The position numbers and the translations under genes were made by a program. Under the pieces are notes generated by a model. That model ran no database searches. It was not told where the DNA came from and saw only the letters and a list, made by a program, of their open reading frames with translations. A DNA stretch of 64,000 bases from Chytriomyces cf. hyalinus JEL632 (lineage: Eukaryota; Chytridiomycota; Chytridiomycetes; Chytridiales; Chytriomycetaceae): positions 186,001-250,000 of the forward strand of contig JAIWWG010000040.1 of the NCBI GenBank assembly GCA_025435555.1, given 5' to 3'. Positions 16,518 through 50,523 of this stretch are shown here, one piece after another (the stretch's first letter is position 1; every line of letters begins with the position of its first letter).

Positions 16518-19052
16518 ATGAAAGGCGACCGGTTCTGCTACTGCCAAAGCACGTGGGAGAGCAGTCGGCGCTTCATGCTTCAGTTGAGTTGATTGATGGG
16601 GAGCTCGCAGGGCACGTTACTGACGCTGGGAAACAGGTGCGATGCATGCAAGGAGTGGTTCCACGGCGATTGTCTCCGTCCATCCATCTCAGAGGAGGAT
16701 GCCTTGCGCTTTGCTCGATTTCACTGTCCAGAATGCACAGTGCTTTCAGGGCCATCCATAGGTAAGTCAGTGCATCCATTTGCGAACTGTTTAGTTTGCT
16801 TTGGAGTCAACTACTTATGTGCATGTGCAGAGCGACAGCTGGTTGCGCGGGCAGTTCGAGAAACGCGAACAATGATTGACTACAACGAGGCCACTTCTCT
16901 CGCCCAGGACGAGCACAAGTACGGTGAGTCACGACCGACGCATCTTGAGTCAACCTGTTTTTCAACTGAAAAACTTGCTCGCAGCAAAGTTATTGCGAGC
17001 AAAGCGTTTTGCGCCGAATCGGTTTCCTTACGTGAATGGCGACACGGTTTCTCTCGAATGGCTTCGATGCACTGGGATGCGCGATCCATTTCTCATCGAG
17101 GATCCTGAGGGACTGGACATGCGCATGCCGCCAGCTTCCTTAACTGTAGACCAAGTTGCTGATGCATGCGGTACTTGTCAAAATTACGTCGTGCTGAATT
17201 TGATCCCAATCGAAAGAACTCACTGCATCCCCAGGCCGAGACATGATTGTTGAAGCGATGGAAGTCCTCTCTCAGCAAGACAAACAAATGACGCTGGACG
17301 AATGGGCCAAATATTTCACACAGCCGCCCGAAAAACGGAAACGTTTGCTAAACGTGATCTCCCTCGAAATCGGATCCACGAAACTGGCGCAAATGATTCA
17401 ACGGCCTCGCATCGTTCGAGAACTCGATTGGACCGAGACCGTATGGCCCCCGCGGAATTTGAAGCCGGAGTTTCCGCGCGTGCAGTTGTATTGTTTGATG
17501 AGTGTTAAGGATTGCTACACTGATTTCCACATTGACTTTGGCGGTTCGTCCGTCTTTTACCATTTGCTCTCGGGCGAAAAGCATTTTTATTTTGTCCGCC
17601 CGACTCCCGTCAATCTGAAAAAATACGAAAAATGGTCTTCTTCGCCGGACCAGTCGACCACATTTTTCGGAGACGAAGTCAAAGAATGTGTCGAAGTCCG
17701 CATCACAGCGGGAAACACGTATGACAATTATCAAAATTTGAAGACTTCACCCGTTGACTAATTCTGTTTTATTGCAGGATGATAATTCCCACGGGTTGGA
17801 TTCATGCCGTATACACGCCCAAAGACTCGATCGTTATTGGAGGAAATTTTCTCCAAGGAATGAACATTGGCGGCCAGTTTGACTGCTACGAAGTTGAAAA
17901 CAGGACAAATGTTCCTCTCAAATTTCGGTATCTTCAATTCTCTTCTGACCATTCATGTTTGCCCGTCCTGATAAATACTCTCTGGTTTCCAGATACCCAT
18001 ATTTCGTTCAAATGCAATGGTTTGCTGCAAAGCACTACCTTACCGTCCTCAAATCCAACCCGCAACCCCAAAACGAATCCTATACCCATTCTGCGCATCC
18101 ATTCTCCAAATGGGAAATTGAAGGACTACGGCGTCTCGCTGATTTCTTGATCACCGAAGTCAAACTTCTCAACGACACGCGTCTTAGTGACCCCAAAACG
18201 CGCAGACGGATACGCGAAAACATTCCATCCGAGTTGAAAAATGTTGCCAAGATGGTGCAAAATTTGCGCAGCTTGGTTGTAAAGGAACAGATGCGGATTG
18301 CTGCGAGCGAAATGAACGCGTCGTTGGCGGGGATGGCGGCCGAACACGCAAGCGATGAAGATGATGGCGACGAGGGTAGCATTGGCGCTTTGAAGGATGA
18401 GGTTCTGTTCAAGGAGGATGAAGAGGAGCCTGAGAACGACTCGGTGGACCAGGTTGTGATTGTGGGCGAATCCAAGTTTGGGAGGCCCATCAAGCTTAAA
18501 CTCAAGTCTCCAAATGCGCTGCCGCAGAAAGAAGCGATTCACTTGGACCTGGAAGACGATGAAGCCGACTTGGAGCATGTTTCAGAATGGAATAGTGACG
18601 ATTCAGAGGCAGAAGTTTACGATGATTACCAGGATGTGGACGATGATGAAGATGATGATGCTGCTGCAGTAGACGATCCCGATGAATCTGCCTCAGATAA
18701 CGAGCAAACGGCGCGACGAAAACGGAAACGAGATGGGAGAAATGGAGCAGAAGCAAGCAAAAAGGTTTCTATTGCAGCGCCAACATCGTTCAAACCTCTC
18801 GCTGTAATAGCTTCTAGCAGTGGAATCACGCCTCAAATGGAAGTGCCATTGGCACAAAGGTCACTCCCCACTTCAAATGTTTACCCGTCAAATAAGGCCC
18901 AGTTGGAAACAGCTCATATCAAAAAGAAACTGGCACCACAGCCGTCAGAAGCCACCAAACAAGCGCTCGCCGCTGCAAAGCCGGCACCACCAAAAAAGAA
19001 AAAGATTGGCGGTTTTCTAGGCCAATTGCTTGCCAAGTCCAAAAAGAAGTAG
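16518..19052 (+). CDS. JHD1: PHD-JmjC histone lysine demethylase, JHD1/KDM2-KDM7 type
   Basis: Seven exons: 16518-16582, 16637-16761, 16831-16923, 16985-17170, 17235-17718, 17778-17927 and 17993-19052, giving 720 residues. An N-terminal PHD finger (residues 5-60: [30 protein letters not shown]) would bind methylated H3 tails. The JmjC domain (about 200-350) carries the iron ligands His and Asp in [10 protein letters not shown] and the distal His in [11 protein letters not shown], plus [10 protein letters not shown] and [10 protein letters not shown] blocks. These residues are intact, so it should be an active Fe(II)/2-oxoglutarate demethylase; family members act on H3K36, H3K9 or H3K27. The C-terminal third is acidic and then Lys-rich, probably a nuclear tail. 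The intron splitting the PHD finger uses a weak GTTGAG donor. Confidence 0.92.
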
Positions 19053-19136: not shown

Positions 19137-22100
19137 TCAGTAGATGTTCTTGAACTTTTTCCGAGTTCCTCCAACCAACTTCTGAACACCACCATCGCCA
19201 AACTCACTTGCAGCAGAAGAACTGCTTTGAAGTTGGTATGCCTTTCGCTTCAAGTTGGGAGTTGCACTTGACTTTTTATCGTTGTTTGGTTTCTTTGCGC
19301 CATTATGTTTGGCGGGTGCAGATGGAGCGCCCATGGCCATTCCAGGAGCGTCACGGAGACCAAAAGACTTGGCAACATGACCTAAATGCAAATGTTTGAG
19401 ATTGAACAGCTGCCGCTCCGTTGAGACGTGGGTGGCATAGGCGCGAACGTGAGACCGGAATGCACTTCTTGCAAGTTCCAAGTTCTAACAAAACATAAAT
19501 GAGTGTTGGTGCTCTCTTAATAAAAGCAGGGTAACGAAATAAACGCGAATCCCACCTTTTCATCCGCCATAATGAACCGCTCAAACATCATTTGCACATC
19601 AGTCGCCCAATCTTCAAGTGACCTCTTTTTCACCCGCTTCCCTTTGGAATCTTTGTCTGACCCCTTCCCTTCCGGTTTCGCTGCAGCGTCTGCACCTTCA
19701 ACCGGTGCGCCCGCCAAGTGCTTCAACACGGCCATACCGTCTTCTGGAGCAACAACAACTCCTTTCCGTTTCAATAAATCGACATATTTGGCTTCACTTG
19801 GAAGAAGCAAACTAACAGCGCTACCAGCCCGCCCCAAACGCGCCGTTCGTCCAATTCGGTGCACATAGTCTTTCACATCGCTCGGCATGTCATATTGAAT
19901 GACGAAACTGATATCTGGCAAATCGAGACCACGTGCGGCAACGTCCGTGCAGATAAGGAGACTGTGTTTATGTTTCTTGAATCCAGTGTATGCTTGCTCT
20001 CGTGCCTTTTGCGACAAGTTTCCATGCAGTTTAAATATGGTTGTTGACGGGAACAGAGGAGATTCAAGGCCACTGGATGTCAGTGCTTCTGCTGAGAGCG
20101 GAGCAAGTGGAGCCGGTTCAGGCTGCGCTGCTTCGGCCTCAGCGTCCTTATCGTCGGCGGATTTTGCGGAATCTTTGGATGCACCTTTTTTACCTTTTCC
20201 ATGCGCTTTGGAGTCCTTTTTATCTTTTGTGGCAGGTTTCGGGTTATTTGCAGCAGCTTCTGCTTCATCGCGTGACGGGCCCTTATGCCCATTCGCGAGC
20301 ATGTGGAACAAGAAATCAACAGAATCGCATGTGTCTGCAAACAGGATTGCCTTGAATCCTCCATACGCAGCACCGCGATTCGCAATTTGCCGAAGAATTG
20401 CAACCAGCGTAACCAAGCGTAGCTTTGCTGGAACTAGAACGTACGTCTGCTTCAATTGCTCGGGAACAGTGAAAAGCCCCTCTTCGTCTTCGTCCATTGC
20501 AGTTGTTGAGGAAACTGCATTCGCTTCTTCAGCTGATGCAGTGTCTTTGTAACCAGACAGGAGGTCAGTAATCTCCTCATCGTCATTCTTGTCTTTTTCT
20601 TGATTGTCCCAGAAATCTTCATCCGAGTCTTCAGCATCGTCCTTCTTTTTTTCAATGATAAAGTCTCGTCCTTTGGAGGGCTTTTTGGCGAGATCAAAGG
20701 TATCTTCGGCTGCGGCAGATTTTTCTTCGTCCTCGGCGGCTTTGATAAACAAAGGATCTTTTAAACTCGTTTCGGCGAGTCGCTGGACACTGCCTTTGAT
20801 TGTTGCTGAGGTGAGCAGAATCTGTTTGTGGACTGGCCAGCATGGGGCTTTCAACCGCTTTTGGATTGAGATGCATGTTTTACGCTTATCATCGATAATT
20901 GCCAACAGTTCTCGAAGAGTTTCTGTGGATCGATTCAAAAAAAAAAACGGATTAAGCTATTTCTTCGAGTGAATCGAGTTTCAGGTCTCTCACCTTCAAA
21001 TCCAAGCTCCAAGAATCGATCAGCCTCATCCAAGACGAGCCACCTCAAATTTCCAATTTCGAATGCACGCGTGGTTTTCAAGTGGTCAATTAAACGTCCA
21101 GGAGTTGAAACTAGAATTGTGCAACCCTTCCGCAAACGCGCTTTTTCGGACTTTTTCTTGTCACCGCCTACAACTAAACCGGGAACAATCCAATGCCGCG
21201 ACGGTTTCGAAGAAGTTGGCTTTGATTTGGTTTCGGTATCTTCATTGCCGTCTTCATCTTCGTTGTCGCTGGCGTCGTCTTCTTCTTTTTCTGCGTTTTC
21301 AACTTGGGTCGTGGATTTACCGTCTGCGGCCGATGCCGTAGAGTATTTGAGTAGAGTTTCCAAAACTGCGCAAATTTGTTTCGCGAGTTCACGAGTCGGT
21401 GCCAGAATAATAGCGACTGTTCCAAGACTTCGATTCAGCTGATTCTATATCACCTCAGACAAATCATTGTTAATTAACAAAGATGGCTTGTATGCTGAAT
21501 GCAATATTTCTAACCCTTTCCGCTTCTGAGCACTGAGTTTGCGCCATAATCAGGGAATGAACAATTGGAAGCAAATACGCAAGAGTTTTTCCAGATCCCG
21601 TCTGCGCCTGGACAAGCGCATCTTTCGAAAACGATAGCGATTTCAAAGTTGCAGCGTTACGTGGAATCAAGGCAGCAAGCGTTGCACGTTGGATTTGTGT
21701 GGGAACTGTGACACCCATTTTCGAAGACAAGTGAGAAATCAAAAATGGGTTCAAGCCAAGTCCAGTGAATGAGTTTATGTCGGTTGCTTCGGGGACTGCG
21801 TTTGAAGTTTGTTTTGGTGCCAATGCGTCGGGGTCCTCCGTTTGGACAGGAAGAGTTTCAGGGGATGGGTTTCCGCTAAAGAGCGAGGAGACAAATGAGG
21901 TGCTCTTTTTGGCGGCACCGTTATTTCCAGCGGCTCCTCCTTTATTGAACGGCGCACCGGGCTTTCCATTCGCAGCTGAAGATTTGTTTGTGGGTCTTGA
22001 CACTTTGACAACGCCTGACTGGAAGGGTTTCTTGAAGGCAGGTTTCTCGGTGGTAGTGGTGGGAGCGACAGAGAGTTGGTCTATGGGACGGTTGTCCCGC

Positions 22101-22258
22101 GGTGCGCTGACCTTCTCTGCTTTGCTTTTGGCAATCTTGTTGACGATGCGCTTCTTCTTCCACGAGCCCTTCCCGACGCCGAATACGGATGCAGAGACAG
22201 ACCCTTGGGTCGGTGCCGTGGGCATGGCGAAGTTCATTTGGAGTCCGTCGTCATCCAT
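19137..22258 (-). CDS. DBP7: DEAD-box RNA helicase DDX31/Dbp7
   Basis: Four exons (22258-21515, 21444-20994, 20922-19556, 19484-19137) give 969 residues. Helicase motifs are all visible: Q motif PTQIQRA, motif I AQTGSGKT, Ia [38 protein letters not shown], and [15 protein letters not shown]. The C-terminal [10 protein letters not shown]...[17 protein letters not shown] block is the DUF4217-type tail typical of DDX31/Dbp7, a nucleolar factor for 60S ribosomal subunit assembly. Two acidic/Lys-rich inserts (after motif Ia and after motif III) make it longer than yeast Dbp7. The N-terminal 150 residues are Lys/Ala-rich and probably disordered. Confidence 0.93.
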
Positions 22259-22329: not shown

Positions 22330-23164
22330 TCACCAAATCTCATTCGCAGGACGAACAGTGAGTTCGAACGTCCAAACGCTCTTTGGCTGTCTGTGCAGCA
22401 TCAGGAACGTGTCTGCAACTCTCGCTGGCTGGATCAAGTCATCGGGGCCGGCGTCGGGCTTCCAGCCTCGCGCATTCTCGCTGTCGACGATGCCGTCGAG
22501 GACTAAGTGCGACACGTGAAGACCGAGGGGCATTAGCTCACGCGCTGTGGACTCGGCCAGCGCTCGAGTAGAGAAGGCGGGTACTGCGACATACGCGAAG
22601 TTGGCGCTGCCTCGGAGCGACGCCGTTGCTCCAGTGAAAAAGACACTTCCTTCCTTGCGTTCAATCTTGGCCGAGTTTTTTGGATGTGAGAGTTTGTGGT
22701 TAACTAGGCATCAGAAATACTCACCATCGAAGGGAGGAGGTGCTGCAGCAGTCGAAGGGGTCCCACAGTGCGAGCAGAGACAGCCTTTGCCAGATCATCG
22801 GCGTCCATGTCAAGCACGGACCCACGGCGGAATGTGCTTGGGCCACCGGCATTCAGCACAACCACTTCGACGGGAGGCATCCCGCTGATTGCACGCGCCG
22901 CCGAGGCAACACTATCCTTTTCAGTCAAGTCGCATTGAACTGCTGTGGCGTTGCCCAGTTCATTCGCTAGTGACTGTTTGAGACACGCGTTCTTTCAGTC
23001 TGATCTCACAAGTTGTCGCCCGGCCCACTTACACTGAGATAGTCCATGGAGCGAGACAGCAAAGCGACATGGTATCCCTCTTTCTGGAATGCCCGAGCCG
23101 TGGCAGACCCGACCCCGGGCCCCACTCCCGCAATGACCACTGTCTTCAACGGGTTATGTGCCAT
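22330..23164 (-). CDS. Atypical short-chain dehydrogenase/reductase
   Basis: Three exons (23164-23033, 22973-22725, 22665-22330) code 238 residues. The Rossmann signature is present (VVIAGVGPGVGSATA near the start; VVLNAGG in the middle). The usual YxxxK catalytic pair is not: the region reads AYVAVPAFSTRALAES, with a Tyr but no Lys four residues on. The fold and cofactor binding are therefore well supported, while classic SDR catalysis is doubtful. It starts only about 40 bases from the divergently transcribed TPGS2 gene, so the two share a promoter region. Confidence 0.85.
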
Positions 23165-23203
23165 TTGTAATGTTTGGTAAAGTTGTTTGAAAATCAAAAC
23201 AAC

Positions 23204-24310
23204 ATGACTCGTAAAAGCAACGCGCTCGACGCAATGCTTGGCGGCTGCGTCGGATATCTCGAGAGTTGTATAGGTGTGTCCCGCGTAACTGTCGGGACAG
23301 GAGATCCGCTTCCATCCACAGCGCAGGCTGTCAGACAGTGGGAATCTGCCGCGTCAGAGCGAGTTCAGTGCGGCTGTCCGGATCTCCCAACCATTCGCAT
23401 AAAAATGCCGTCAGATTTGCTCGCGTTCTATGAAATGACAGATGGTTTATCAGTGACTTGGGCGAGTCGATTCAAAGCCGCAGAGCCACCCAACCATCAA
23501 ATTCAAGGAAAGCCAATTCAACTTCGCAACGCGCTTGGAAATATACACGTGAATAAATTGGAAGCAGTCACGATGGTTCCTATTCAGGGATATGGAGCAA
23601 TCTCTCTTGATGGTGTTGATCCCCAGGCATTTGTTGGCATTGCGTTGCCTCCTGGCCCAGCATTCCTCCTGCATGATATGGGTCCAGCTATTGGAGGCGT
23701 ATGCCTTTTGTATCCCTTGCCAGTGCCGGATGATCAGCAACATCAGCTTGACAACCCCCAAATTTGGTTCTGTTCAACCCGTTCGCTGCAATGGTACCAT
23801 CTGACAAATTCATTTTCAAGCTACATGCGGCTTGCAGTTGCGCACCTTGGGATCTGCGGATGGCCGCTAATATTCACGGACATGGGGGTCCCACAAGAAG
23901 TGCTTGACTGGCTCAGTTTATATTCTCCAGCCCAGGCAAAATCGGTGCGTCATTTGAGAGCAAAACTGTTTGCCAGTGTTGCAGAAACTACCACGCATGC
24001 AACGATATCAAACGCACACTTGGCATCAACGGATAAAGCGAAGGAAGACTCGGAGTGGGATTTGGACGCGACGCGGCAAATCATCAAAAATATGCAGACA
24101 GGCAAAACTCGGAAAGCTGACGTGACTAGCAATCTCAGCATAAACAGCAATTTGAGTGTTCGCGTTGCACTGAATGGGTCACTGCCTGATGGCGCATCCA
24201 CGGCTTCATCTTCCCTCCCGCCCTCAATACCTGGCACCGTGTCTGCCAATGCCACGCCGACAAGCACAGGCATGAAAGTGGGTGGAGTATCTTCATCGCT
24301 GTTGCGGTGA
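23204..24310 (+). CDS. TPGS2: Tubulin polyglutamylase complex subunit 2
   Basis: Single exon. The first in-frame ATG is at 23174, but the one at 23204 is preferred because 23174 falls 10 bases from the divergent SDR start. The protein has the TPGS2 pattern: FYEMTDGLSVTW (about residues 65-75), a LGNIHVNKLEA block, IWFCSTRSLQWYHLTNSFSSYMRLAVAHLGICGWPLIF and LDWLSLYSPAQ, then a Ser/Thr-rich tail. TPGS2 is a non-catalytic subunit of the TTLL1 complex that adds glutamate chains to tubulin in axonemes and centrioles. Finding it means the organism makes flagella. LRRC49, a second subunit of the same complex, follows 38 bases downstream on the same strand. Confidence 0.85.
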   Translation: MTRKSNALDAMLGGCVGYLESCIGVSRVTVGTGDPLPSTAQAVRQWESAASERVQCGCPDLPTIRIKMPSDLLAFYEMTDGLSVTWASRFKAAEPPNHQIQGKPIQLRNALGNIHVNKLEAVTMVPIQGYGAISLDGVDPQAFVGIALPPGPAFLLHDMGPAIGGVCLLYPLPVPDDQQHQLDNPQIWFCSTRSLQWYHLTNSFSSYMRLAVAHLGICGWPLIFTDMGVPQEVLDWLSLYSPAQAKSVRHLRAKLFASVAETTTHATISNAHLASTDKAKEDSEWDLDATRQIIKNMQTGKTRKADVTSNLSINSNLSVRVALNGSLPDGASTASSSLPPSIPGTVSANATPTSTGMKVGGVSSSLLR

Positions 24311-24347
24311 AAGCGTTGAATAAAAAACAGAATTAAATTCAAAGTAA

Positions 24348-26714
24348 ATGCGAAAGACAAACTCGCGCGTTTCGTCCGCATCGCAATCAACGGCATCCGC
24401 AGCACTCGCAGCAACACAACGACAGGCGTGGATGGGGTTTGCCCCGCCAGAAGGAATTCGAGGGACTCAGCCGTCATCATCGCGTTCTCGCAGTGCCGAC
24501 CTTGTCAAAACAAAGCAGGACTCGGGCGTGGGAATCGATGTACCAACACACGCATTAAACAAGGAGGACATTCTTCATCAGGTACCTTGGCTGTCATTAA
24601 ATATATTGCATACACTCAGATTGCCAACCATTCTCGCTGTGTGTGCCCAGAGAAGCGATGAAGAGCGAGAGTTAAACCCAGAACGCGTCAATTTAAACCG
24701 CCAAGACCTCCGCAACTGCATTTACCTTCCCAACGAATATCGCCTCCGTTTGCTCAATTACCAATCCAATTTTATCGCACGCATCGAAAACTTGGATAAC
24801 CTCACAAACTTGGTCTTTCTGGACTTTTACAATAACAGCATCCACAAGTTGGAAGGCTTGGATCGGCTGGCGAATCTGCGTGTTTTAATGGTGCGCTATC
24901 CATGTTTCAGTGGTGGTGGTGGTGGTTGATGTACTGACACGCTGTCTCGCAGCTGGGTCGCAACAAGATTCAACGGATCCAAGGGTTGGATAAGCTTCTC
25001 AAATTGGATGTGCTCGACATTCACTCGAATCAAATATCAAAGATTGGTTCGGCGCTCGTACTCGGAAAATTACCAAAGCCAACTAAAATGAGAATCTATC
25101 CAGAAAACCTGAGCCACTTGGCGCATTTACGCGTTCTCAATTTAGAAGACAACACCATTTCATGCATGGAACGGCTTCCGTCAGCGTCGTTGGCCGAACT
25201 CAATCTCAAGCGAAACCAGGTACGCATACGCATACAACAACCACACTAGAAACTGAATGCAACAAAGAAACAAATAGATTGCAAAAGTCACCGGAGTGCA
25301 AACTTTATCCCACTTGAAACGTCTAATCCTCTCCCATAACCACCTGTCCGCGTTCGAGAACATGGTGGATCTGCTCCTTTCCCCATCACTGCTTGAACTG
25401 AGCATGGAACAGAACCCAATCACAACAGACCAGTACTACCGACTCATCCTTGCAAACCGAATCAAATCGTTGAAGTACTTGGACGGCAAACGAATCAGCG
25501 AGGAGGAAAAGCGGACAGCCACTCGCATTGCGAAACGGGAAACTGAGCGGCGAAAAGAAAGCGAGCGAGTTTTGACGCTTGCGGAGGAAAGGAAAAAGGC
25601 GATTGAAAATATTCAAGGTCGCTGGGAACGCGAAATGGAGGCTGAAAGGCGAAAGTTTCGTGGATTCGAGGATTATGTTTGTGTGGGTGATAAGGATGAT
25701 AGCGACAAGGACAAGAGAACTTTAACGAGAAAGGGACTGGGGCCGCGTGTTGGTATGCTTCGCTGTTATGTGGATTCAACTACTCACTCGCTTATTTTCG
25801 TGATCCTGCTTTCCATCAGATGAGAAGGGGGCTGGCGGACTCATGTTCACCGACAGCGGCCAAATGTTCATGTAAGTTTCTTATTCCTTCTATGATTCAG
25901 AGATAACCATTATTGGTAGGTATGGCGTAGATTCGTTGGCGTTGGGGGAAAAAGCGGACCTTTCCACAGTCACATCCCTCTCATATCAATACATTGACAT
26001 GGGCAAACTTGCCGGGTCGTTTTCTCGCCTGAAACGCGGGACTGACTTGGAGCTCATTACCTTTTCAAACAACAACATCAACTCGCTTAAAAAGGTGGAT
26101 TATGATTGACATGTCCATGAATTGAGGGCACTGAACCCACCAACAACTCCCTCTCAGATTGACCCACTCTCTGCACTATGCCTGCCACGCCCCTTCTCCG
26201 TTGTGATTGAAAACAACGCAATCACTGAATCGCCATTCTTTTTCCATTACGCGCTGTTCCGGCTAACGCGCTTCTCAAACCAAAACTTTGTCAAGACTCT
26301 GAACGGAGTCGCTGTGACACCAGAAATGGCCCAAGAAGCACAGCATCGATTTAGTAAGTTTGTTAATTTGTTGAAATGCATGTGAGCCTTGCTTGACGGA
26401 ACAGGTAAACTTGTGGCAAATGCAGGCTCTCTTCGTATTGGGAGTACTGTTGATGGTGATGCTGCATCCAAACTAGCCTTTACAGAAGCGTGCGATGATC
26501 AAGCGGGTACATCAGCGAGTGAGAAGGTGACAGCAAGTTCATGTGAGTTTGAGTTTTTCGAGGATATGGATATTCACGATGAGTACTGAACAAGCAAACA
26601 ACAACGCGTTCAGTCGTTGACGCGTTAATGAAGGACGTTGTGGAAACAAACAGGCGCAGGCATGAGTTTGACCGGCTGCTCCCTGAAGTGCTCCAGGCTT
26701 GTCTGACTGAATAA
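24348..26714 (+). CDS. LRRC49: Leucine-rich repeat subunit of tubulin polyglutamylase complex
   Basis: Ten exons: 24348-24581, 24651-24890, 24953-25046, 25104-25219, 25278-25752, 25820-25871, 25920-26094, 26158-26353, 26405-26542 and 26614-26714, giving 606 residues. After a Ser-rich start come ERELNPERVNLNRQDL and a run of SDS22-type leucine-rich repeats (LDNLTNLVFLDFYNN, LDKLLKLDVLDIHSNQISKIENL, LRVLNLEDN, LKRLILSHNHL). A charged coiled coil follows (KRTATRIAKRETERRKESERV). The C-terminal half ends in YALFRLTRFSNQNFVKTLNGVAVT. Order and motifs match LRRC49, a scaffold of the TTLL1-TPGS1-TPGS2 complex. The 57-nt intron 25047-25103 has no stop, but removing it restores a continuous repeat. 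Confidence 0.88.
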
Positions 26715-26770: not shown

Positions 26771-27226
26771 TCACTCCGGGGCTATAATGACAACACTTCT
26801 GGGACTCATCTGAATGACCAAAAGAAGTCGTCGCTTGTCTGAGCCTCCCCTCCCATTTCCTTCTCTCAAATTGGCTCGTCCGCTCCCCTGCTTCAGCCTT
26901 ATTGGGATTCGACCCTGGATTTCTCGAGTGGCAGTCTTTCTCTCTTGTCTCACGCGTTCCCAATTGCGCCACTCAACCCATGCTGGCTTGACCAATGTTT
27001 GTGACTATAATCTCCATCTGTGTGACTGTTGCGCTGCACAGATCCGATGCAAACTCTCCATTCATGACATCCTGTTCCAATCTTCCTAGTTAACGATACC
27101 CACTGACAACCCGGCGCTTTCACTGCCCTTCGCGATTTCAAGCGTGCGTTGTTTGCTTCCGAGAGATTTCCAATAAAATAAATACTTGCACTGAAAAAGG
27201 AAGGCTGAAACATTTTGTGCGCAATG
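26771..27226 (-). repeat. SINE-like repeat, copy B, inverted relative to copy A
   Basis: The reverse complement of this stretch matches 11580-12040 almost base for base, including the A-box-like and B-box-like tRNA motifs. It sits between the LRRC49 stop and the 3' end of the RabGGTase gene. One edge carries a short insertion relative to copy A near 27190. Confidence 0.65.
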
Positions 27227-27423: not shown

Positions 27424-29649
27424 TTAATAATGAATTAAAACTCCTTCAACGTCAACCCGTTCAACTACAGCATCATTTTCAGCGACCCACACCTCTTTCA
27501 GACCTTTTCCCACCTCTAATCCTCGCAAACTTGTCAGCATGTTTTTCTTGATACTCAGTCGCTGCAAGAGAGGCATCATGTCCAACCGACGCACTCTTTG
27601 AATGAAGTTATTGTCCAAGTTCAATTCGCGGAGACATGGAAACAGAGGAATGTCAGTCAATGCATGATTGGGCAGGTTCAGAATTGTGAGGATTGGGGGA
27701 AGAAGATGTGGAGTTATGATGCGCGTAAGTTTCCATGGCGTGGGTGGGATTGCGGTTGATTCAGAAGGGGTTGGTTGTGTAAGCTTGTGGAGCGTTTGAT
27801 TCCAATGAAAGTCACTGACTGTTTGATGGTTTTGGGTTAGAGACATCAACATCCAATCGAAGCGAAAAAACGCTCACCAGTATCGCGGTAATAATGCTTT
27901 CGGTCCGGATCCAACCTTTCCAATGTATCACAAACAGAAATGGCTTCACGCACGTTGCTTTCACCCCCCAATTCTCTCAAGCAATGCACAAGCGCCATCC
28001 ACGGCCATTTACTCTCAGGCTCAAACTCAGCAAGTTCACGAATCGATGTCAGCTCACGTTCCCAAATTTCGCGCGGCTGGTACTGGTTACTTTGTAGCGT
28101 ATTGTTTGTTTGGGCGTCGGATTGGGTTGCGATGGTTCCTTCCACACGCATCGCGGTTCGAGTCGCGTCGAAAGACAAACTGACGTCTTCCAATTGAGAG
28201 TTTGATGTGGGCAGGTTGAAGCAATCTGGCTTCAAACAGATTTCGAGATTCAAAGGAGTGTCCGCTTGAGGGGCGATTATTGAGACTGACACCACATGGC
28301 TTGGTGTGATTGGAGTGTTTGTAGCGTTGTGTTCGAAGCGATATTTGGTGTCAGAGAGAATCACCTTCGATGGGTTCATCTGTCATCAATGCTGGTTATT
28401 TTACATGTACAAAAACTGGATGGAATGTCCGGCTTACCGAAACTGCCGTGTTGAAGCAAACGAATACGATGAATTTTGCATTAGAAACACGCTCTGCGAT
28501 CGCCCATTCGACAGTCAGATTCGAAGGCTCTGATGAAGAAAACGATACATTGAGCAACCAAGTTATATTTCAATCGAAATGGCTTACTTTGACCCAAAAG
28601 CCATCTCTGATACAACCAAGCACTCTGGTCGGCAGGCTCCGTATAAATAGCATTTCGCACCGTCTCGAAATCTAACAACGAAGTCAGATCGAAAAAGCCG
28701 CAGTAAACTGACAAAATTGGTCTTCGCAGGAACGCACCTTTTTGAATTATCGAATCACGTTGTTCGAAATCCTCGCCAGTCACACTCGGAATCAATCGAC
28801 TTCGATAGTGCCAGGCGCTGTAATTTGAAAAATTTTGACGAATTTTCGCGCTTGTATATTCGATTTCGGCGAGGTCTGGTAAGCGGCCTGCACTTTTGAG
28901 AACAGAGCGACGATAACTCCAGCCATGGACTGGCATGAATGAATGAACATCAGCTTAGGAAGGTGGCAGGTATAGCAGGGGCATGGTGGGAAAGACTTAC
29001 AATTGCGAGCATCAAGATCCAGCATCATTTGCGAAATTAGCAGTTCTCGATCCCAGTCCGGCGCTAACAAAGCAACAGTTCATCAGCACGCAGCAAACAT
29101 GATTTCGAATGTCAAGCTCACACGGCATATTTTCAAGAACCCAGCGTCTGTGCACCCAGAGCCAATACGACTTCGGGTGGATGCGAATGAGCTTTTCAAG
29201 CAGTTTTAAATCCTTTTTCGCAAGCAAGACACGATCCTTTTCATCACTGCCAGGATATTTTTGAATGCGACCCGGAGTTTCTTAGAATAAACGATACGCA
29301 TCCATTGTTGTATTACGTTCTTACGAGTGCGATGTGGCGAACAAGTGTGTCAGAATACGGCGGCGGTAGTTCCAGACAGTGTATGCATCTGGATTTAGCT
29401 CCACAACGGCCTGGGTTGCATCCAGTGCGGATGGATCGAATGGATCGGCCGAGTCCTGTGATTGTTGTTTGATGCAATTTCTTGTGGTCAGAGTGGTTTG
29501 CTGAAACTGGTGATTCCAATGCTTACCCGCATCGTTGCCATGACCGCCCACGTGTCAATGTATGTCTTTGTGCGCCGCTTGTTGGCTTCCGTCTCTGCGG
29601 CAGACAAGACTGCGCTGCTCTTTTTCTGGTTGTGCGAGCCATCGGCCAT
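27424..29649 (-). CDS. RABGGTA: Rab geranylgeranyltransferase alpha subunit with LRR domain
   Basis: Nine exons: 29649-29527, 29455-29325, 29246-29122, 29063-29001, 28929-28738, 28671-28588, 28529-28438, 28379-27878 and 27818-27424, giving 568 residues. Prenyltransferase alpha repeats are plain: NPDAYTVWNYRRRIL, HPKSYWLWVHRRWVLENM, DARNFHGWSYRRSVL, NFSNYSAWHYRSRL and DQSAWLYQRWLLGQ. A middle beta-rich part follows, then a helical return (WPWMALVHCLRELGG) and a C-terminal leucine-rich repeat block (LTILNLPNHALTDI, LRELNLDNNFIQRV). It would pair with the beta subunit to prenylate Rab GTPases. The middle and LRR domains are features of the animal protein and are absent from yeast Bet4. Confidence 0.92.
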
Positions 29650-32700: not shown

Positions 32701-35700
32701 CTGATGCTGACTAGATTCGGGCTACATTCACGCAATACTTGGACTTCGTTGTTACCAACATGGACAAAGACGCTTTCGCAGCGGCTGTACCTGCAATTGA
32801 TGTTCTTCGTGTCAGTTATGGACTCATGCCAGATGTTGCGTTTACGATTCTGAGACCAAAACTGAATACAATCCTGAAGGTAAACAAATATTTGTTTGTA
32901 TCATTCAGTCTTACTGACACCCATTCCATCTGCAGACGAAACCAGAAATCTCTGGCGAGTCCATGGAAGTTGATGGAGAAATTGCGCAACCGCAGTATCA
33001 CCCGGGGTTGGAAGGCACGATCCAAAGCGTCCGAAAAACACTCCCGAGCCAAGTTTGGGATACAATGTCACCGCACTTTTACATCACCTTTTGGCAACTC
33101 AGCTTAAGCGATATTGCGTTCCCAAAAGACAAATACTTGGCTGAAATAGCAAAACTGAAAGCCACAGTCGAAGCCCTCGCGAGAGAAAAAGGAAACGTAC
33201 CTCCCAATAATACACCAGCAAAAAGAAAGAAGGATCGGGAGCGTCATCTGGCCACCATTTTGCTGCTGGAGAAAGAAATGGAAGTGCAATCCGCCGAGTC
33301 GGCGAAAACTTTGGCGAGGCTTAAGCATGAATGCTTGACCTGGTTTCAGCCGAACGGTTAGCGCTGACTTTTGACTACATTGTTTTTTGATTCTCACTGT
33401 GTTTCTTTGCCGATAGAATCCGTTCAAGACTTGAAGGCTTTTGGATTCCAGCTCGTTGATTTGATTATTCAACACTGCTTGGTTCCTCGCTGTCTTTTCT
33501 CTCCGGCAGACGCGATTTATACTGCCAAATTCATTTATTTGGCGCACTCTTTGGGTGCTCCTAACCTGATGACCGTCCCTGTGTTTGACAAGGTTTGACA
33601 ATCTGCAACTGATTGAAACTTGTGCTCACTCATTTCCCAAATGTCGCTCTTTCAGATTTTAGACCGCAACAATCTTCAATCAATGATTTACATCTGCTCT
33701 GAAATGGAAGCAAGAAACTACGGCCGTTTCCTTTGCGAAATCCTCACCACGCTGACTCAGTGGTTCACAAAACTGCACCAATACACTCAAGAATGCATTG
33801 GCGATGGATTGCCTGGTTTCGCGCTCCGTTGGAACCCGGACGCAGACACAAGCACTCCCATAACAAAACTCCCAATCAGCGATCTCATGAAGCACGAAGA
33901 ATTCAGCAAAGTCATGTTCAAATGGCACAGTAAAATGCATCGCGCATTTACACTGTGTCTTGAAAGTGGCGAGTACGCGCAAATCACGAATGCAGTCATT
34001 GTCCTGGACAAAATCTCGGACGTTTTCCCGCTGATCCGTGAACATGCCATTCAACTGGATGAGAGTTGTCGTGGCGTGGCTGAGAAAGAAGTGGACCGTA
34101 AAGATTTAAAGCTCATGTGTACCGCGTATTCCGGGAGGTTACAAGTGATGGCACGAAAGTTGATGACAAAGGCTGCATTTCAGAATGGAGGTGTTGACCC
34201 GAATCCACAGGCTTCCCAGCCATTGGTGACGAATAGTAGAAGCTCATCGGGAATGGAAGCGCCAGGGAGAGATTTGAGAATGAGTCGAGGAATGTCGAGC
34301 GACCAATTAGACATGCGGAGTGACCGGGATAGAGGAAGTCGGGGTGACAGAGATGCAGCTGGAAGAGATACCAGAGGAGGGTCTGGGTCTGGATCTGGAG
34401 GGACACGTATTGAGTTCCAAGAGCGTCGTTCTGACAGAGACCGGGATGCCCGTGCTCCGCCTGCGCGTATCCAAGAACGCAGCGATCATCGTGACGATCG
34501 ACGCGGTGCAAACGCTGCAGTTGTTGAGGCAAAGATTGTTGAGAAAGACTCCCGCTCCTCTGTACTACCTGTCAAGGATTCTCCTCGGAGAAGTGGGCGT
34601 GATGATGCTTTTCGTTCTGGTGAAGAGACCAAGAGGGTAGAGGCCGTGCGCATCAGTGAGAAGAAGGATGATACAAGGAGGGTTGATGAAGAGGCAAAGA
34701 GAGGAGAGTCTGCACGTCCTAGTGAAAAGAAGGAAGATGGGAGGAGAGTCGATGAAGAGCCCAAGCGTGACGAGGTTAAAAAAGAGGATTTGAAGAAGGA
34801 GGAACCAAGGCGTGAGGAAGCAAAGCGTGACGATACCAAGCGTGATGAAGTCAAACGAGATGACACTAAACGCGACGATCCAAAGCGCACAGACAGACGT
34901 GACAAGGACCGAAGAGGAGACAGGGACGAGCGGCGTCAAGATGGAAGAGACGATAAAAGAACGGATCGAGACCGTGACAGAGACCGCGATGACTCACGGC
35001 GCAAGGAAAGAGGCCGAGACAGGGTCCGAACCGAAGAAAGCAGTTCTATCGCAACTTCGAATTCTCCACCTAAGGTTGTCAGCAGTTCTGTGAATGCCCC
35101 TATCGATGCACCGGCGGCTGTTGTTGAAAAGAAGGCAACAGATGATATACATCTTCGCCAGTTGCGCGAAAAACTCAAGCAAAGCAAGAATGCGGCACAT
35201 TCAACGGATGGGGAACCAAACCCGATTCCGGGCCTCCCGCCGCGTCCATCTATTTCTCTCATTGAACGCCGCCCAGAAGGACCCGACAAGGCACCTTCCC
35301 CTCCCCCTCCGCCGCCAATTGCACATAACGCCAATGTTCCGCGGGCTGACATGCAACCATCTGATACCCAACAGAAAACCGCTCCAAACGCGGGTTCTCC
35401 AGCAGAAAGACCGCGTCTTTCCATCATCGAACGTCTCGGGAAGCGGTCGGAGTCATCCACCTCGACTCCGGCCTCTACGCCAGAAAACGATCGCTCTATT
35501 CGAAAAGAGCGGGACGAAGGTGCATCACCCAAAGATCGTGGTTCTGGCGATGTTGACAGATCTCGCGACCGTTCAGACAAGGGAAGAGATGGCAGGGATC
35601 GCGGTGATCGAAGGGAGCGCAAGAATCGTGATAAGGTGCGTGCTTTTTTTTGGTTACTCTTGGTTCAAAATCCTCAAATTCTTCCTTTTAAAAACAGGAC

Positions 35701-36312
35701 GACTCTGAGCAACGAAAGCGTGATCGCGATCAATCGAATTTAGAAAGAGAACCAAAGCGACCTAAAATGGATGAGATTGAAGGGCTACCTTCAAGACCCG
35801 ATCGAAAGAGACAGTCTGACGATGCAGCGCCCGCATCTGTCGGACATGCAACTGGCGATCAAAAACTAGATCCTAAAGCTGCATCAACAGGCGGTGCTCA
35901 AAGTGCAAACTCAACCGCAATTGTGACTGACGCTGGCACTGCCGACACGACACCTGCAACAGCCGATAACGCCACTAAGCGCTTCAAGATTGATCGCTCC
36001 TCACTTGAAAACAATGCTGGTTCGCAGGAATCTGTCGCACCGCCAAGCATTGCAGAAAGACTCGGCGATCCTAGTCGTCAAGATGTTCGAGAGGGTGGAG
36101 GCGAAATGGGCCGGGGCAGGAATGGTGATGGTCGTGGAGGACGCGGTCGAGATGATCAGAGCAATAGCAGCGGCGGTTATGGCGGGCGTAACGGGGGCGG
36201 TGGTGGTCACAGACGACATGATAACCGGAATCGCGATGGTGGTGGTAACAACAGAGATGGGAACGGAAACAGAGATGGAAGAAATGACAGAAATGATCGC
36301 AAGTACCGTTAA
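29703..36312 (+). CDS. THO2: THO complex subunit 2
   Basis: A large gene with about eleven exons and roughly 1,950-2,000 residues. Good junctions are 29764/29850 and 30117/30180; introns also lie near 30404, 31000, 31665, 32650, 32880, 33358, 33592 and 35635. The edge after 30403 is uncertain. Diagnostic blocks are LCERLDFDFLEAMGVIQSAQ, YKQQKFNLLREESEGFA, LILDVF, GHILGFKFDYY, YGEWKHKTYTTNPLL, SKETVKRFGRYVGKIAHGNP and AVIVLDKISDVFPL. The last ~700 residues are Arg/Asp/Lys/Glu-rich (many KRDD/RDRD units), with proline stretches and a Gly/Arg/Asn-rich RGG-like end, typical of RNA-binding tails. THO couples transcription to mRNP packaging and export in the nucleus. Its ATG is 53 bases from the divergent RabGGTase start. 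Confidence 0.92.
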
Positions 36313-45727: not shown

Positions 45728-46858
45728 ATGAATCCAGAAGCCCCAAGTGAACAAGTCCAAGTCCAGTTTCAAGCAGTAATCCAGAGGTACGAAGACCAAC
45801 TCTCCGAGTACCGTGAAGCCCTCCACAACCTCTACAACGAAGTAGCAGCCCTCCGCACACCTCCAGTACCAGTCCAGACCACCCCAAGCGAACCTCCTGC
45901 CACCATCCAACGTCCATTGCCTCTCTTCAGAATGCCAGCTGTCAAGCCCCTCATCTTCTCTGGGAACCACCGCAACCGTCCCGCTCATGAAATCCAGAAC
46001 TACCTCGACGATTACCTCGAACGCTCCTGTGAAATCTGTACCCTCTATGGTTTTGCTCCTTCCACCAATGACCTGACCCAACAGAACCAGCCTACCTACG
46101 TCCAATTTGTTTCCTCTGGTCTCTCTGAAACTGCACGTGTTGCCTGGCGCCGTTTCCCCGAACAAGAACGCCACCACATGACCTGGAATGACTACGCCGC
46201 ATGGATCCAGAAAGCCTTTGGTTCCCACCTCACTCTCAAGCAAGCCATTGAAGCCATGGAAGACCTCCAACAGACCAGCTCAGCCACCCTCTACACCTCC
46301 AAGTTCAATGAACTCGTCTCTGCTATCGCTGCCTCAAGTGTCCAGTACCCAGTCAAGCATCTCTGCGTCAAGTACCTCCAAGGCCTCAAGTTCCACATCC
46401 GTACCAACCCAGCCATCTTTGCCATCGACGAAGACCTTGACCACCTCCAACAAGAAGCTGAAAAACTTGATGACCTCACTTTCCGTCACAACAAACGCAA
46501 CGCCGCTGAAATCCGCAAGAACCCCTCAACGGCCTCCACGTCCCGCGCTTCAACCAATCAGTCCTTTCGATCAGCCCAAGGCCACTCCTTCAAAACAGCC
46601 ATCCCCGAAACCAATGACCCGATGGACCTTGGGAACACTCAGCAAACAACACCCTACCCACGTCTCACCCCAGAACAGAAAGCACTCTACCATTCCAATG
46701 GCTGGTGCGTTTACTGTCAAGCCAGAGACCACGATACCGACCACTGCTCCAAACTCCGTAACAGTCAAGCCCAGCTTGCCACCAAGCCCCCAGCCAGAAT
46801 TAACAATGCCTCAACTCAAGCCGAAGGTACAGAAGCAGACAGCGAAGTCGAACTCTAA
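45728..46858 (+). CDS. gag: Gag of the LTR retrotransposon
   Basis: 376 residues. An N-terminal coiled-coil stretch (QFQAVIQRYEDQLSEYREALHN-like heptads) leads into a capsid-like retrotransposon gag domain (about residues 75-230, with YVQFVSSGLSETARVAWRRF and LYTSKFNELVSAI). Near residue 335 lies a CCHC zinc knuckle, WCVYCQARDHDTDHCSK (Cys-x2-Cys-x4-His-x4-Cys). It ends at a TAA just before the protease frame, which lies in the +1 phase and overlaps the whole 3' part of gag. Pol must therefore be made by +1 frameshifting or another recoding step. Confidence 0.9.
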   Translation: MNPEAPSEQVQVQFQAVIQRYEDQLSEYREALHNLYNEVAALRTPPVPVQTTPSEPPATIQRPLPLFRMPAVKPLIFSGNHRNRPAHEIQNYLDDYLERSCEICTLYGFAPSTNDLTQQNQPTYVQFVSSGLSETARVAWRRFPEQERHHMTWNDYAAWIQKAFGSHLTLKQAIEAMEDLQQTSSATLYTSKFNELVSAIAASSVQYPVKHLCVKYLQGLKFHIRTNPAIFAIDEDLDHLQQEAEKLDDLTFRHNKRNAAEIRKNPSTASTSRASTNQSFRSAQGHSFKTAIPETNDPMDLGNTQQTTPYPRLTPEQKALYHSNGWCVYCQARDHDTDHCSKLRNSQAQLATKPPARINNASTQAEGTEADSEVEL

Positions 46859-49800
46859 TTGGTTCTCTGCCCTCCCCTTTGACAATCCACCCGACCACCT
46901 GACCCCAGTTACTGTCCCTGCTCCTTCCGTTCAAGTCCACTGTCCCAAGCTTCCCCTGTTCCAAGTCCAGACCCAGCACTCCACGCCCTACGCCGACAGT
47001 CCCGGCCTCCTCGTCTGCCAAGGTACCATCAATGAACACCCCATCTCCATCCTCATTGACTCTGGAGCCAATCCAAGTTTCATCAACTCAAGCCTACCGT
47101 TCCTCCAAAACAAGTCCCTCGTTCCTCAAGCCTGCAAGATCAAGCTCGCCAACAGTTCTGTTGTTAAAGGCCAGCGTACCGAGCCTCTACAAGTGAAAAT
47201 AAACAATACTTCCTTCCAAGACTACCGTTCTTTTACTACTGTCCCTGACCTTGCATACGACCTGATCCTCGGAAAAGACTGGCTCGATGCCCACAATCCC
47301 TCCATTGACTGGCCAACAAACCATGTCCGCATTGGTCCACACAGCTGGAAATGCCGTTCTCCGCGTTCCTCTCCGGAAGTCCTTACCGCGCAGCAATTCA
47401 TCAATCTCCTCCAGACCCTCCAGCCCGACGATTTCCTCGGAGCCATCCTGCCTCAAAAGATAAAGGTTACTACGTCTGGCAGTGACAGAGCCGATGAATC
47501 TATACGTACCTCCCTCCCGCCAAACCTCCAGACGATCGTGGACCGATATCCAGATGTCTTTGCCCCATTCGAGGGCCTACCGCCATCCAGACCTACCGAC
47601 ATGAAGATTGATGTAGATCCTTCTGCTAACTCCAGCCCTCCCTACCGACCAATCTACCCAATGAGCGCCCCAGAACTCAAGGCCATTCCAAGAAGAAATC
47701 ACTTACCTCCTCAAGCACCAACGCATCAGAGCCTCCACTTCCCCTTACGGAGCTCCTGTCTTCTTTGTCAAGCAAAAGGATAAACTACGCCTTGTCTTCG
47801 ACTACCGCGCCGTGAACAAACTCACCGTCAAGAATCGCGCTGCCCTCCCAAACATCCTCAAGTCCCTCGACCGCCTCTCCAAAGCCAAGTACTTCACCAA
47901 GATCGACCTCTCCTCCGGCTTCCACCAGATCCGCATCCAAGAATCCGACATCCACAAGACTGCCTTCCGCACCAAGTATGGCCACTACGAATGGGTCGTT
48001 ATGCCCTTTGGCCTTGCAAATGCTCCCGCCGTATTCCAGACTACCCTCGGCTCCATATTCCGTGACTTCATTGACGCCTTCCTCACTGTCTACATTGACG
48101 ACCTCCTCATCTTCTCCGAGACCCTCGAAGACCACCTCAAGCACATAGACCAAGTACTGCAACGCCTCCAAGCCAACAAGCTCCACATTCGCCTTTCAAA
48201 GTGCTCCTTCCTCCAGCAAGAACTCGAATACCTTGGCTATTGGATTGCTAGAGGTTCCATCTCTGTCCTACCATCCAGAACCAGCTCCATCACTGACTTT
48301 GAAGAACCTTCCAACTACTCCGAACTTCGTTCCTTCCTGGGACTCGCCAACACCGTCCATCGCTTTATCAAGCACCACGCCGCCCTCATTGCACCTCTCT
48401 CAGACATCCTCCGTGACCACAAGACTACCTCCTTCTCCGACAAGTGGAATGACACAGCCCGCAGCCATTTCATCAACATCAAACGGATCCTTGCCTCTCC
48501 AGAATTGCTCGCCATCTTCAACCCTGAACTTCCTGTCCATCTTTACACCGACTGGTCCGCCCGCGCCGTCGGTGGCTACATCGCCCAACCAGACTCTACC
48601 GGAACTGACCAGCCCATTGCCTACTACTCCCGCAAGCTCAAGCCAGAAGAATCCAAGTACCACCCCTACATGGGCGAAATCCTCGCTCTTGTTGAATGCC
48701 TCAACCACTTTCGCCATTACATTCATGGCAATCAAATCCTCGCCTTTACCGACCACCAGTCCCTTCGCCACATCCTCACCCAACCCAAGCTCCGCCCTGT
48801 CCACCATCGCTGGTTAGCCGACCTGCTGGCCTACGATTTCCAGATCCAGTGGACTCCGGGGGAGTGGAACACCATTGCTGACGCACTGTCAAGAAGAAGA
48901 TTCGCAACTGATGCCTCCGTTCAAGTCAACCTCCAAGGAAACACTGTCCATTCTACCGTCCAGATCCCAGAATCTTACCTCCTGCTCAACACCACGACCC
49001 TGACCATCACTGATAACCTCATGAACGATATCAAGGACATGAACACTACCGACCCCCAGTTCTTAGAAATAGCGCAGTTTTTAGTTGACCCACTGGACCC
49101 AGAAACCTACGACCATGACCCATCCAAGGCTCCCAAGAACCTCCTCCCTCAGATCTCAAGATATCGACTCCGCGACGGTTTCCTCCACTACGTTGACAAA
49201 ACCCACGCAAGACTCTACGTTCCAGCCCCTCTCCGCAACTCGCTACTCAAGAAAGCTCACTCCTACGGTCCAGCAATCCACAACAACTGGGAACGCACCT
49301 CCGAACGCCTCACCAGATACTTCCACTGGCCAAAACTCCATCGCGATGTCCAGCGACTCTGCCAGAACTGCGATAACTGCCAACGCCTCAAGGTAGCACG
49401 CCACGCCCCTTATGGACTCCTCCAGCCTCACGACGTCCCGCCCTTCCCATGGCACACTTGCTCCATGGACTTCATGACCAAGCCCCCTCTCACCAAGTCA
49501 GGATACGACGCCCTCATGGTAGTTGTCGACTCTGGAACCAAACAAACAAGATTAATCCCATGCCACACCACCTCAACTGCACGCGATATTGCCAATCTCT
49601 TCGAAACTCACATCTTCCCGCACCATGGTATTCCAGTCCATTTCATCTCTGATCGAGACACCAAGTTCACCTCCAACTTTTGGCAAGCACTCTGCAAGTC
49701 CCTCCGAATCAAGCTGACGATCTCCAGCTCTTCCCATCCTCAAACTGACGGCCAGACAGAACAAAAGAACGACTGGATCCTCCAAGCACTACGACACTTT

Positions 49801-50523
49801 GTTGCTCCCTACCAAGACGACTGGGACATCCACCTACCCAAGATCGAATTTGGGATCAACGATACAGTCAATTCAAGTACTGGTTACACACCTTTCTTCC
49901 TCGAGTACGGTCGCCACCCTCGCTCCATGATCAACATCAACCTCCCGCCTGACACCTCCCTCTCTATCAAGGACATCCGCGCAGAATACCAAGTTGCCAA
50001 GGATCGAGTTCGTGACTCTCAAGACAAGTACGCTGCCATCGCCAATCGCAAGCGCCTCGAATCCCCCTTCAAAGTTGGAGATTTAGTTCTTGTCTCAGCC
50101 AAGGAATTCAAGCCTCCCAACCTTCGATACCGACAGACCAACAAGCTCTCTGAACAGTACTCCGGCCCCTACAAGATCATCGAACTTGTTGGACCTGTCC
50201 CGTCCTGCAAGCTAGCTCTTCCCACAGATTGGGGAGTCCACCCTGTCTTCCACCCTGAAAAACTTCGACCTTACTTCTTCGACACAGCCAAACATCCTCT
50301 TGACAACCAGCCCATTGCTTTACGCGTCATTGACAAAGTCCTCTCTTCTCGTATTCTTGACGGTCACAAGCAAGTCCTCATCCAATGGAAAGACCACCAC
50401 CCTGTCTACAACTGTTGGTTAAACGCGACTCCAGAACTCATGCAACGCGTCAAGCAAGACCAACCTCCGCCAAGTTCACTCCCCTTTTCATCGCGTACGC
50501 TCTTGGAGGCGGGTGTCACGTAA
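46830..50523 (+). pseudogene. pol: Pol of the LTR retrotransposon, one frame break
   Basis: Protease is in the first part (ILIDSGANPSF near 47050, the Asp-Ser-Gly active site). Reverse transcriptase follows with STSPYGAPVFFVKQ, FDYRAVNKL, and the catalytic VYIDDLLIF at about 48088-48114. RNase H (LYTDWSARAVGGY) lies near 48545, then integrase with its zinc-binding head (near 49260-49400, ending CQNCDNC) and the D,D-35-E core (MDFM, SDRDTKF, HPQTDGQTEQ). The last 50 residues (LDGHKQVLIQWKDHH...NCWL) look like a chromodomain. An apparent extra C at about 47688-47689 shifts the frame between protease and RT, so this copy should not make full Pol. The stop lies inside the first 10 bases of the 3' LTR. 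Confidence 0.88.
50505..50513 (+). other. Polypurine tract
   Basis: GGAGGCGGG abuts the 3' LTR, where plus-strand DNA synthesis would be primed. It is still part of the pol reading frame. Confidence 0.65.

What the first reader, a model, noticed from the sequence alone, without database searches (positions are those of the whole stretch)
23204..26714. TPGS2 and LRRC49, two subunits of one tubulin polyglutamylase complex, are direct neighbours
Two non-catalytic subunits of the TTLL1 complex lie head-to-tail 38 bases apart on the same strand. Eukaryotic genes for one complex rarely sit together, and this complex is little studied in fungi. It suggests co-regulation in zoospores and a conserved fungal polyglutamylase.
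Basis: partly seen in the sequence, partly recalled or inferred. Interest (0 to 1): 0.78.

Follow-up and report, generated by a model that had tools for sequence, protein, structure and literature searches.

The report
Neighbouring tubulin polyglutamylase subunit genes, chytrid
In a chytrid fungus, the genes for two helper proteins of the enzyme complex that adds glutamates to tubulin sit side by side; the two genes are real and correctly named, but it is not yet shown whether their closeness is functional or just a feature of a tightly packed stretch of genome.

Summary
A single-exon TPGS2 gene (23204-24310, 368 aa) and a ten-exon LRRC49 gene (24348-26714, 599 aa in my model) lie head to tail on the + strand, 37 bp apart (not 38). 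Both assignments survive profiles that hold no named fungal sequence. Each is single-copy in this 37.8 Mb chytrid genome, whose nearest named relatives are Chytriomyces. A TTLL1-type ligase gene lies on another contig (TTLL1 named from recalled motifs). TPGS1 and NICN1 were not found, by weak tests.

Conserved order is supported only indirectly: C. hyalinus TPGS2 and LRRC49 have the same source-contig length, 22,464 bp. Five animals likewise show both genes on contigs of equal, chromosome-scale length. No chytrid TPGS2 outside Chytriomyces was named among the 120 of 254 rows shown, so order in other chytrids is untested. The two preceding gaps are also tiny (71 and 39 bp), so 37 bp is locally ordinary. 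Co-regulation is unproven.

Verdict: new member of a known kind, with an untested possibility of ancient linkage.

The parts
23204..24310 (+). TPGS2 (tubulin polyglutamylase complex subunit 2) gene, single exon, 368 aa
24311..24347 (+). 37-bp spacer between TPGS2 stop and LRRC49 start; contains AATAAA, a possible polyadenylation signal
   Evidence: sequence; signal assignment is inference
24348..26714 (+). LRRC49 gene, ten exons: 24348-24581, 24651-24890, 24953-25046, 25104-25219, 25278-25752, 25820-25871, 25920-26094, 26158-26353, 26426-26542, 26614-26714 (599 aa)
   Evidence: splice sites chosen by GT-AG and by alignment to Chytriomyces proteins, no transcript data
23165..23203 (.). 39-bp gap to the divergent upstream gene; possible shared 5' region
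22330..23164 (-). divergent neighbour, short-chain-dehydrogenase-like gene (by eye from its Rossmann-type N-terminus)
   Evidence: family recalled, not scanned

Best explanation
These are the chytrid orthologues of TPGS2 and LRRC49, two non-catalytic subunits of the TTLL1-containing tubulin polyglutamylase complex. In the cell they most likely help assemble and target the TTLL1-type ligase, which glutamylates tubulin tails, probably of the zoospore flagellum and basal body. The genes are separate: each has its own conserved end, and they lie close because this stretch of the genome is very compact. LRRC49 is probably transcribed from a promoter inside the 3' part of TPGS2. Shown: the identities, the single copies, the adjacency. 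Inferred: assembly into one complex, the flagellar role, the promoter position. Whether adjacency is selected for is open.
For: Named close homologues; profiles without named fungal rows; single copies; TTL-domain matches on eight contigs, one with TTLL1-type sequence (recalled motifs); a paper passage stating that TTLL1 does not bind microtubules itself and needs the complex (PMC13121839, passages). Separate genes: C. hyalinus TPGS2 ends and LRRC49 starts at the same residues as here. Compactness: gaps of 71, 39 and 37 bp in a row.
Against: TPGS1 was not found with a recalled human sequence (best E 1.05) or with Pfam TPGS1_C (where the 14 controls were silent too). NICN1 was not found with a recalled sequence. 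The window TPGS2 is diverged: no Pfam hit even at E 10, and its AlphaFold model is poor (mean pLDDT 56.5). The next gap, after LRRC49, is about 700 bp, so compactness is local (three gaps measured). There is no expression or interaction data.
Confidence: 0.78

Rival explanations
1. The pair is a selected, co-expressed unit: one read-through or bicistronic transcript, or one shared regulatory region, that keeps two subunits in step during zoospore formation.
For: Same strand, 37-bp spacer; apparent retention in C. hyalinus (equal contig length 22,464). Bicistronic transcripts occur in fungi: in budding yeast at least 27 of 367 bicistronic pairs were called functionally related (PMC8573964, passages), and a short intergenic sequence from Glarea allows re-initiation (PMC10352335, passages). 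One X-box-like site with one mismatch lies at 22897-22910, 294 bp before the TPGS2 start, and 2 of the 3 two-mismatch matches lie within about 510 bp before it.
Against: The spacer holds an AATAAA, and the two preceding unrelated genes are packed about as tightly. X-box-like sites are not enriched: 3 matches against 5.85 expected, 16 against 17-37 in five plain shuffles; the site noted lies inside the neighbouring gene. Spizellomyces ciliary promoters also showed no enriched motif (PMC10530576, passage). No transcripts are available.
Confidence: 0.2
2. The adjacency is an ancient linkage of TPGS2 and LRRC49 inherited from the common ancestor of fungi and animals.
For: Among the listed rows (120 of 361 and 120 of 254), all 5 animal species that I find named in both lists have TPGS2 and LRRC49 on a longest contig of the same length: Mactra, Branchiostoma, Dreissena, Saccostrea echinata, Liolophura. 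Recalled, unverified: human LRRC49 and TPGS2 lie near the related genes CELF6 and CELF4.
Against: Equal contig length is indirect, and those contigs are 34-145 Mb, so distance is unknown. Chromosome content is conserved among bilaterians (recalled), so five animals may be one event of about 1 in 20. In humans the genes are on different chromosomes (recalled). Other chytrids are untested.
Confidence: 0.12
3. One fused gene: an intron joins TPGS2 and LRRC49 into a single protein.
For: Very short gap; introns are short here and two of nine are open in frame (24582-24650, 25047-25103).
Against: In-frame stop; both ends conserved with separately listed C. hyalinus proteins; the TPGS2 profile found no TPGS2 part in any of the 120 listed LRRC49-search proteins P0004-P0123.
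Confidence: 0.02

Closest known systems
TPGS2 (PGs2, C18orf10) of animals
   Same: Profile match over N-terminal and core parts; 22-27% identity to the nine animal rows of A4, with conserved Trp, Arg, His and Gly positions
   Different: Core motif GLPQWQYAFT of most animal rows reads GICGWPLIFT here; long Ser/Thr/Pro-rich tail; no Pfam SMI1_KNR4 hit, though many listed rows show none either
LRRC49 (PGs4) of animals
   Same: LRR block plus the LRRC49 C-terminal region
   Different: Shorter and diverged outside the repeats; 599 aa in my model, against roughly 700-900 aa for most animal rows listed
TTLL1 tubulin polyglutamylase complex (TPGC) of mammals
   Same: Three components have candidates here: TTLL1-type, TPGS2, LRRC49
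   Different: TPGS1 and NICN1 not found; CSTPP1 not searched; two subunit genes adjacent

Membership tests
TPGS2 | Match to a TPGS2 profile without named fungal sequences | tested here: met
   E 4.9e-27, the only hit at E 10 or better among 691 window ORFs
TPGS2 | SMI1/KNR4-type domain | tested here: inconclusive
   No Pfam hit; low-confidence model, Knr4 core has the highest Foldseek probability of the 50 rows shown (0.63) but at E 0.3; many listed TPGS2 rows also lack PF09346
LRRC49 | Leucine-rich repeats | tested here: met
   PF12799 and PF14580 above cut-off in two exon ORFs
LRRC49 | LRRC49-specific C-terminal region | tested here: met
   E 3.7e-15 to an HMM from 14 chosen animal proteins
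TTLL1 complex (TPGC) | Catalytic TTLL1 in the genome | tested here: inconclusive
   TTL domain found by PF03133 on C21; TTLL1 rather than TTLL9 rests on recalled motifs (L018)
TTLL1 complex (TPGC) | TPGS1 in the genome | tested here: inconclusive
   No significant hit; the 14 controls were also silent, query recalled
TTLL1 complex (TPGC) | NICN1 in the genome | tested here: inconclusive
   Nothing with a recalled human query
TTLL1 complex (TPGC) | CSTPP1 in the genome | not tested
   No query used
TTLL1 complex (TPGC) | Physical assembly and glutamylase activity | not testable with these tools
   Needs biochemistry

The most novel reading that the evidence does not exclude
TPGS2 and LRRC49 have stayed linked since before fungi and animals split, and in Chytriomyces-type chytrids they form a co-transcribed pair, a rare eukaryotic 'complex operon' for a flagellar tubulin-modifying enzyme.
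Probability: 0.08. Interest if true: 0.7.

Novelty: new member of a known kind. Interest (0 to 1): 0.36.

Why it matters
It places two accessory subunits of the TTLL1 complex in a flagellated fungus, a group where my paper searches surfaced no study of this complex in the titles and abstracts listed. No solved structure of either subunit turned up by sequence (TPGS2: none at E 1 or better; LRRC49: none named so among the best 60 of 103). The adjacency gives a simple, testable question about whether gene order carries co-expression of a complex in early fungi.

Tried and rejected
Fusion with LRRC49: rejected (stop codon, conserved separate ends). Structure of TPGS2: AlphaFold on a 12-row alignment gave mean pLDDT 56.5; Foldseek found nothing at E 0.001 or better. 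RFX X-box: no excess, with one one-mismatch site 294 bp before TPGS2 noted as a weak lead. TPGS2 relatives in prokaryote and viral contig collections: 39 and 30 stretches matched a pattern, none confirmed. A bacterial promoter/terminator scan around the spacer does not apply to a fungus. A hexamer coding scan recovered little beyond its own training ORFs and was not used. The TTLL1 neighbourhood was fetched but not analysed. My first LRRC49 model (629 aa) kept one intron (24582-24650) and used another acceptor in the eighth; searches used that first model. Deeper gene order: the third protein search listed 120 of 254 hits, its named rows animals apart from C. hyalinus, so chytrid TPGS2 proteins ranked lower, if any, were not seen. 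Against conserved order: two other Chytriomyces LRRC49 rows (P0005, contig 13,997; P0006, contig 37,468) have no TPGS2 row of matching contig length (3 hits in all); missing annotation, a merged gene model outside the length limits, or contig ends could explain this, but so could loss of linkage.

Full report
What is there. The window lies in contig C178 (186001-250000) of an unnamed 37.8 Mb, 242-contig genome. Its closest relatives by these two proteins are Chytriomyces hyalinus and C. confervae at 84-87% identity, so it is a chytrid of that kind. At 23204-24310 on the + strand an uninterrupted ORF encodes 368 residues. At 24348-26714 a gene of ten exons encodes 599 residues in my revised model. 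The stop and start codons are 37 bp apart.

Identity of the first gene. The best named homologue is C. hyalinus 'Tubulin polyglutamylase complex subunit 2' at 85% (3 hits in all, one of them the window's own). A search seeded with the window protein and a metagenomic relative (P0003) returned animal TPGS2 proteins (120 of 254 hits listed). Because that profile was partly seeded by the animal-like metagenomic sequence, I tested without both: an HMM of 106 proteins from that list (of 117; 11 dropped for length; the named rows are animals, some are unnamed metagenome rows) against all 691 window ORFs of at least 50 aa gave one hit, this ORF, E 4.9e-27. Pfam gives no hit at all.

Identity of the second gene. 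Homologues named LRRC49 are listed from Chytriomyces, Geranomyces, Thoreauomyces, Dinochytrium, Terramyces and Chytridiales sp. JEL 0842, and related proteins under other names from Rhizoclosmatium, Obelidium, Spizellomyces and Batrachochytrium (120 of 361 hits listed, only the 7991 candidates sharing most words scored). Since LRR proteins resemble each other, I tested the part outside the repeats: an HMM of the C-terminal regions of 14 animal LRRC49 proteins that I chose matches the window C-terminus at E 3.7e-15. Both genes are single-copy in their own genome: TPGS2 has 1 match in all. Of 33 matches to the LRRC49 query, 9 are this gene's exons and 24 lie elsewhere, the best of those at E 2.0e-10 and 39% identity in the LRR part, as expected for other LRR proteins.

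The rest of the complex. Pfam TTL matches (22) fall on eight contigs. Reading six of these regions and the other two, the C21 gene carries the sequence I recall as TTLL1-type (with DKHCFECYGYDIIVDADLRPWLIEVNASPSL) and the C1 gene the TTLL9 type; the names are from recall. TTLL4-like and TTLL5-like genes (also recalled) each occur as a pair on two contigs, 89.7% and 86.6% identical in DNA, which may be duplicates or divergent haplotypes kept apart in the assembly. TPGS1 was not found by a recalled human query (best E 1.05) nor by Pfam TPGS1_C, where controls were silent too. NICN1 was not found. Given how diverged TPGS2 is here, these blanks do not show absence.

Is the adjacency meaningful? 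For: C. hyalinus TPGS2 (P0002) and LRRC49 (P0004) both come from a single contig of length 22,464 bp, so almost certainly the same contig. Against: two other Chytriomyces LRRC49 rows have no matching TPGS2 row, and at 85% protein identity shared order is expected for most genes anyway (inference). Local packing is tight: the helicase-to-dehydrogenase gap is 71 bp and the dehydrogenase-to-TPGS2 gap 39 bp; the gap after LRRC49, to the next recognised ORF at 27424, is about 700 bp. A 37-bp gap therefore does not by itself point to an operon. X-box-like sites (consensus from PMC10530576, passage) are not enriched in the window, but one with a single mismatch lies at 22897-22910, 294 bp before the TPGS2 start, inside the neighbouring gene. 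I take it as a weak lead only.

A lead beyond the finding. I find five animal species named in both result lists, and in all 5 the two genes have the same longest-contig length: Mactra antiquata 41,966,991; Branchiostoma 34,052,543; Dreissena 145,370,454; Saccostrea echinata 54,306,292; Liolophura 58,388,612. So they very probably share a chromosome in these animals, at unknown distance. Because bilaterian chromosomes tend to keep their gene content (recalled), this may be a single chance event of roughly 1 in 20. It is worth a look but proves nothing yet.

How it probably works. In mammals TTLL1 does not bind microtubules itself and needs the complex (PMC13121839, passages); CSTPP1 loss disrupts assembly and stability of the complex and ciliogenesis (PMC12376688, a review, one passage); TPGS1 and LRRC49 are treated as members in a Commander interactome study (PMC11189303, passages). 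That TPGS2 is a subunit is recalled and carried by the protein names. The chytrid pair most likely supports the same complex in a fungus whose zoospore has a flagellum; this is inference from orthology. The literature searches surfaced no study of this complex in chytrids in the titles and abstracts listed; the one paper that holds all three terms (PMC6406257) was seen as a listing only.

Noticed in passing
46182-50520: Ty3/gypsy-type retrotransposon: gag-protease ORF and RT-RNase H-integrase ORF. Described only.
   Followed up: no
27424-28936, - strand: Convergent neighbour with prenyltransferase alpha repeats (PF01239) and a leucine-rich repeat, like a Rab geranylgeranyltransferase alpha subunit (name recalled).
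   Followed up: partly
19517-22258, - strand: DEAD-box helicase gene upstream (PF00270, PF00271).
   Followed up: partly
33617-35743, + strand: THO2-like gene (PF11262).
   Followed up: no
17949-19052, + strand: Weak RRN6-like C-terminal match (PF20639, 24 bits, just under the curated cut-off of 26.1).
   Followed up: no
L001/L002 and L015/L016: Two TTLL genes each occur as a pair on different contigs of the genome, 89.7% and 86.6% identical in DNA over more than 3 kb: duplicates, or divergent haplotypes kept apart in the assembly.
   Followed up: partly
22897-22910, + strand: X-box-like (RFX) site with one mismatch, 294 bp before the TPGS2 start, inside the divergent neighbour gene; such sites are not enriched in the window.
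   Followed up: partly
26870-26985, - strand: A stretch that looks to the eye like an intron-bearing tRNA; ARAGORN in bacterial mode reported none in the window.
   Followed up: no
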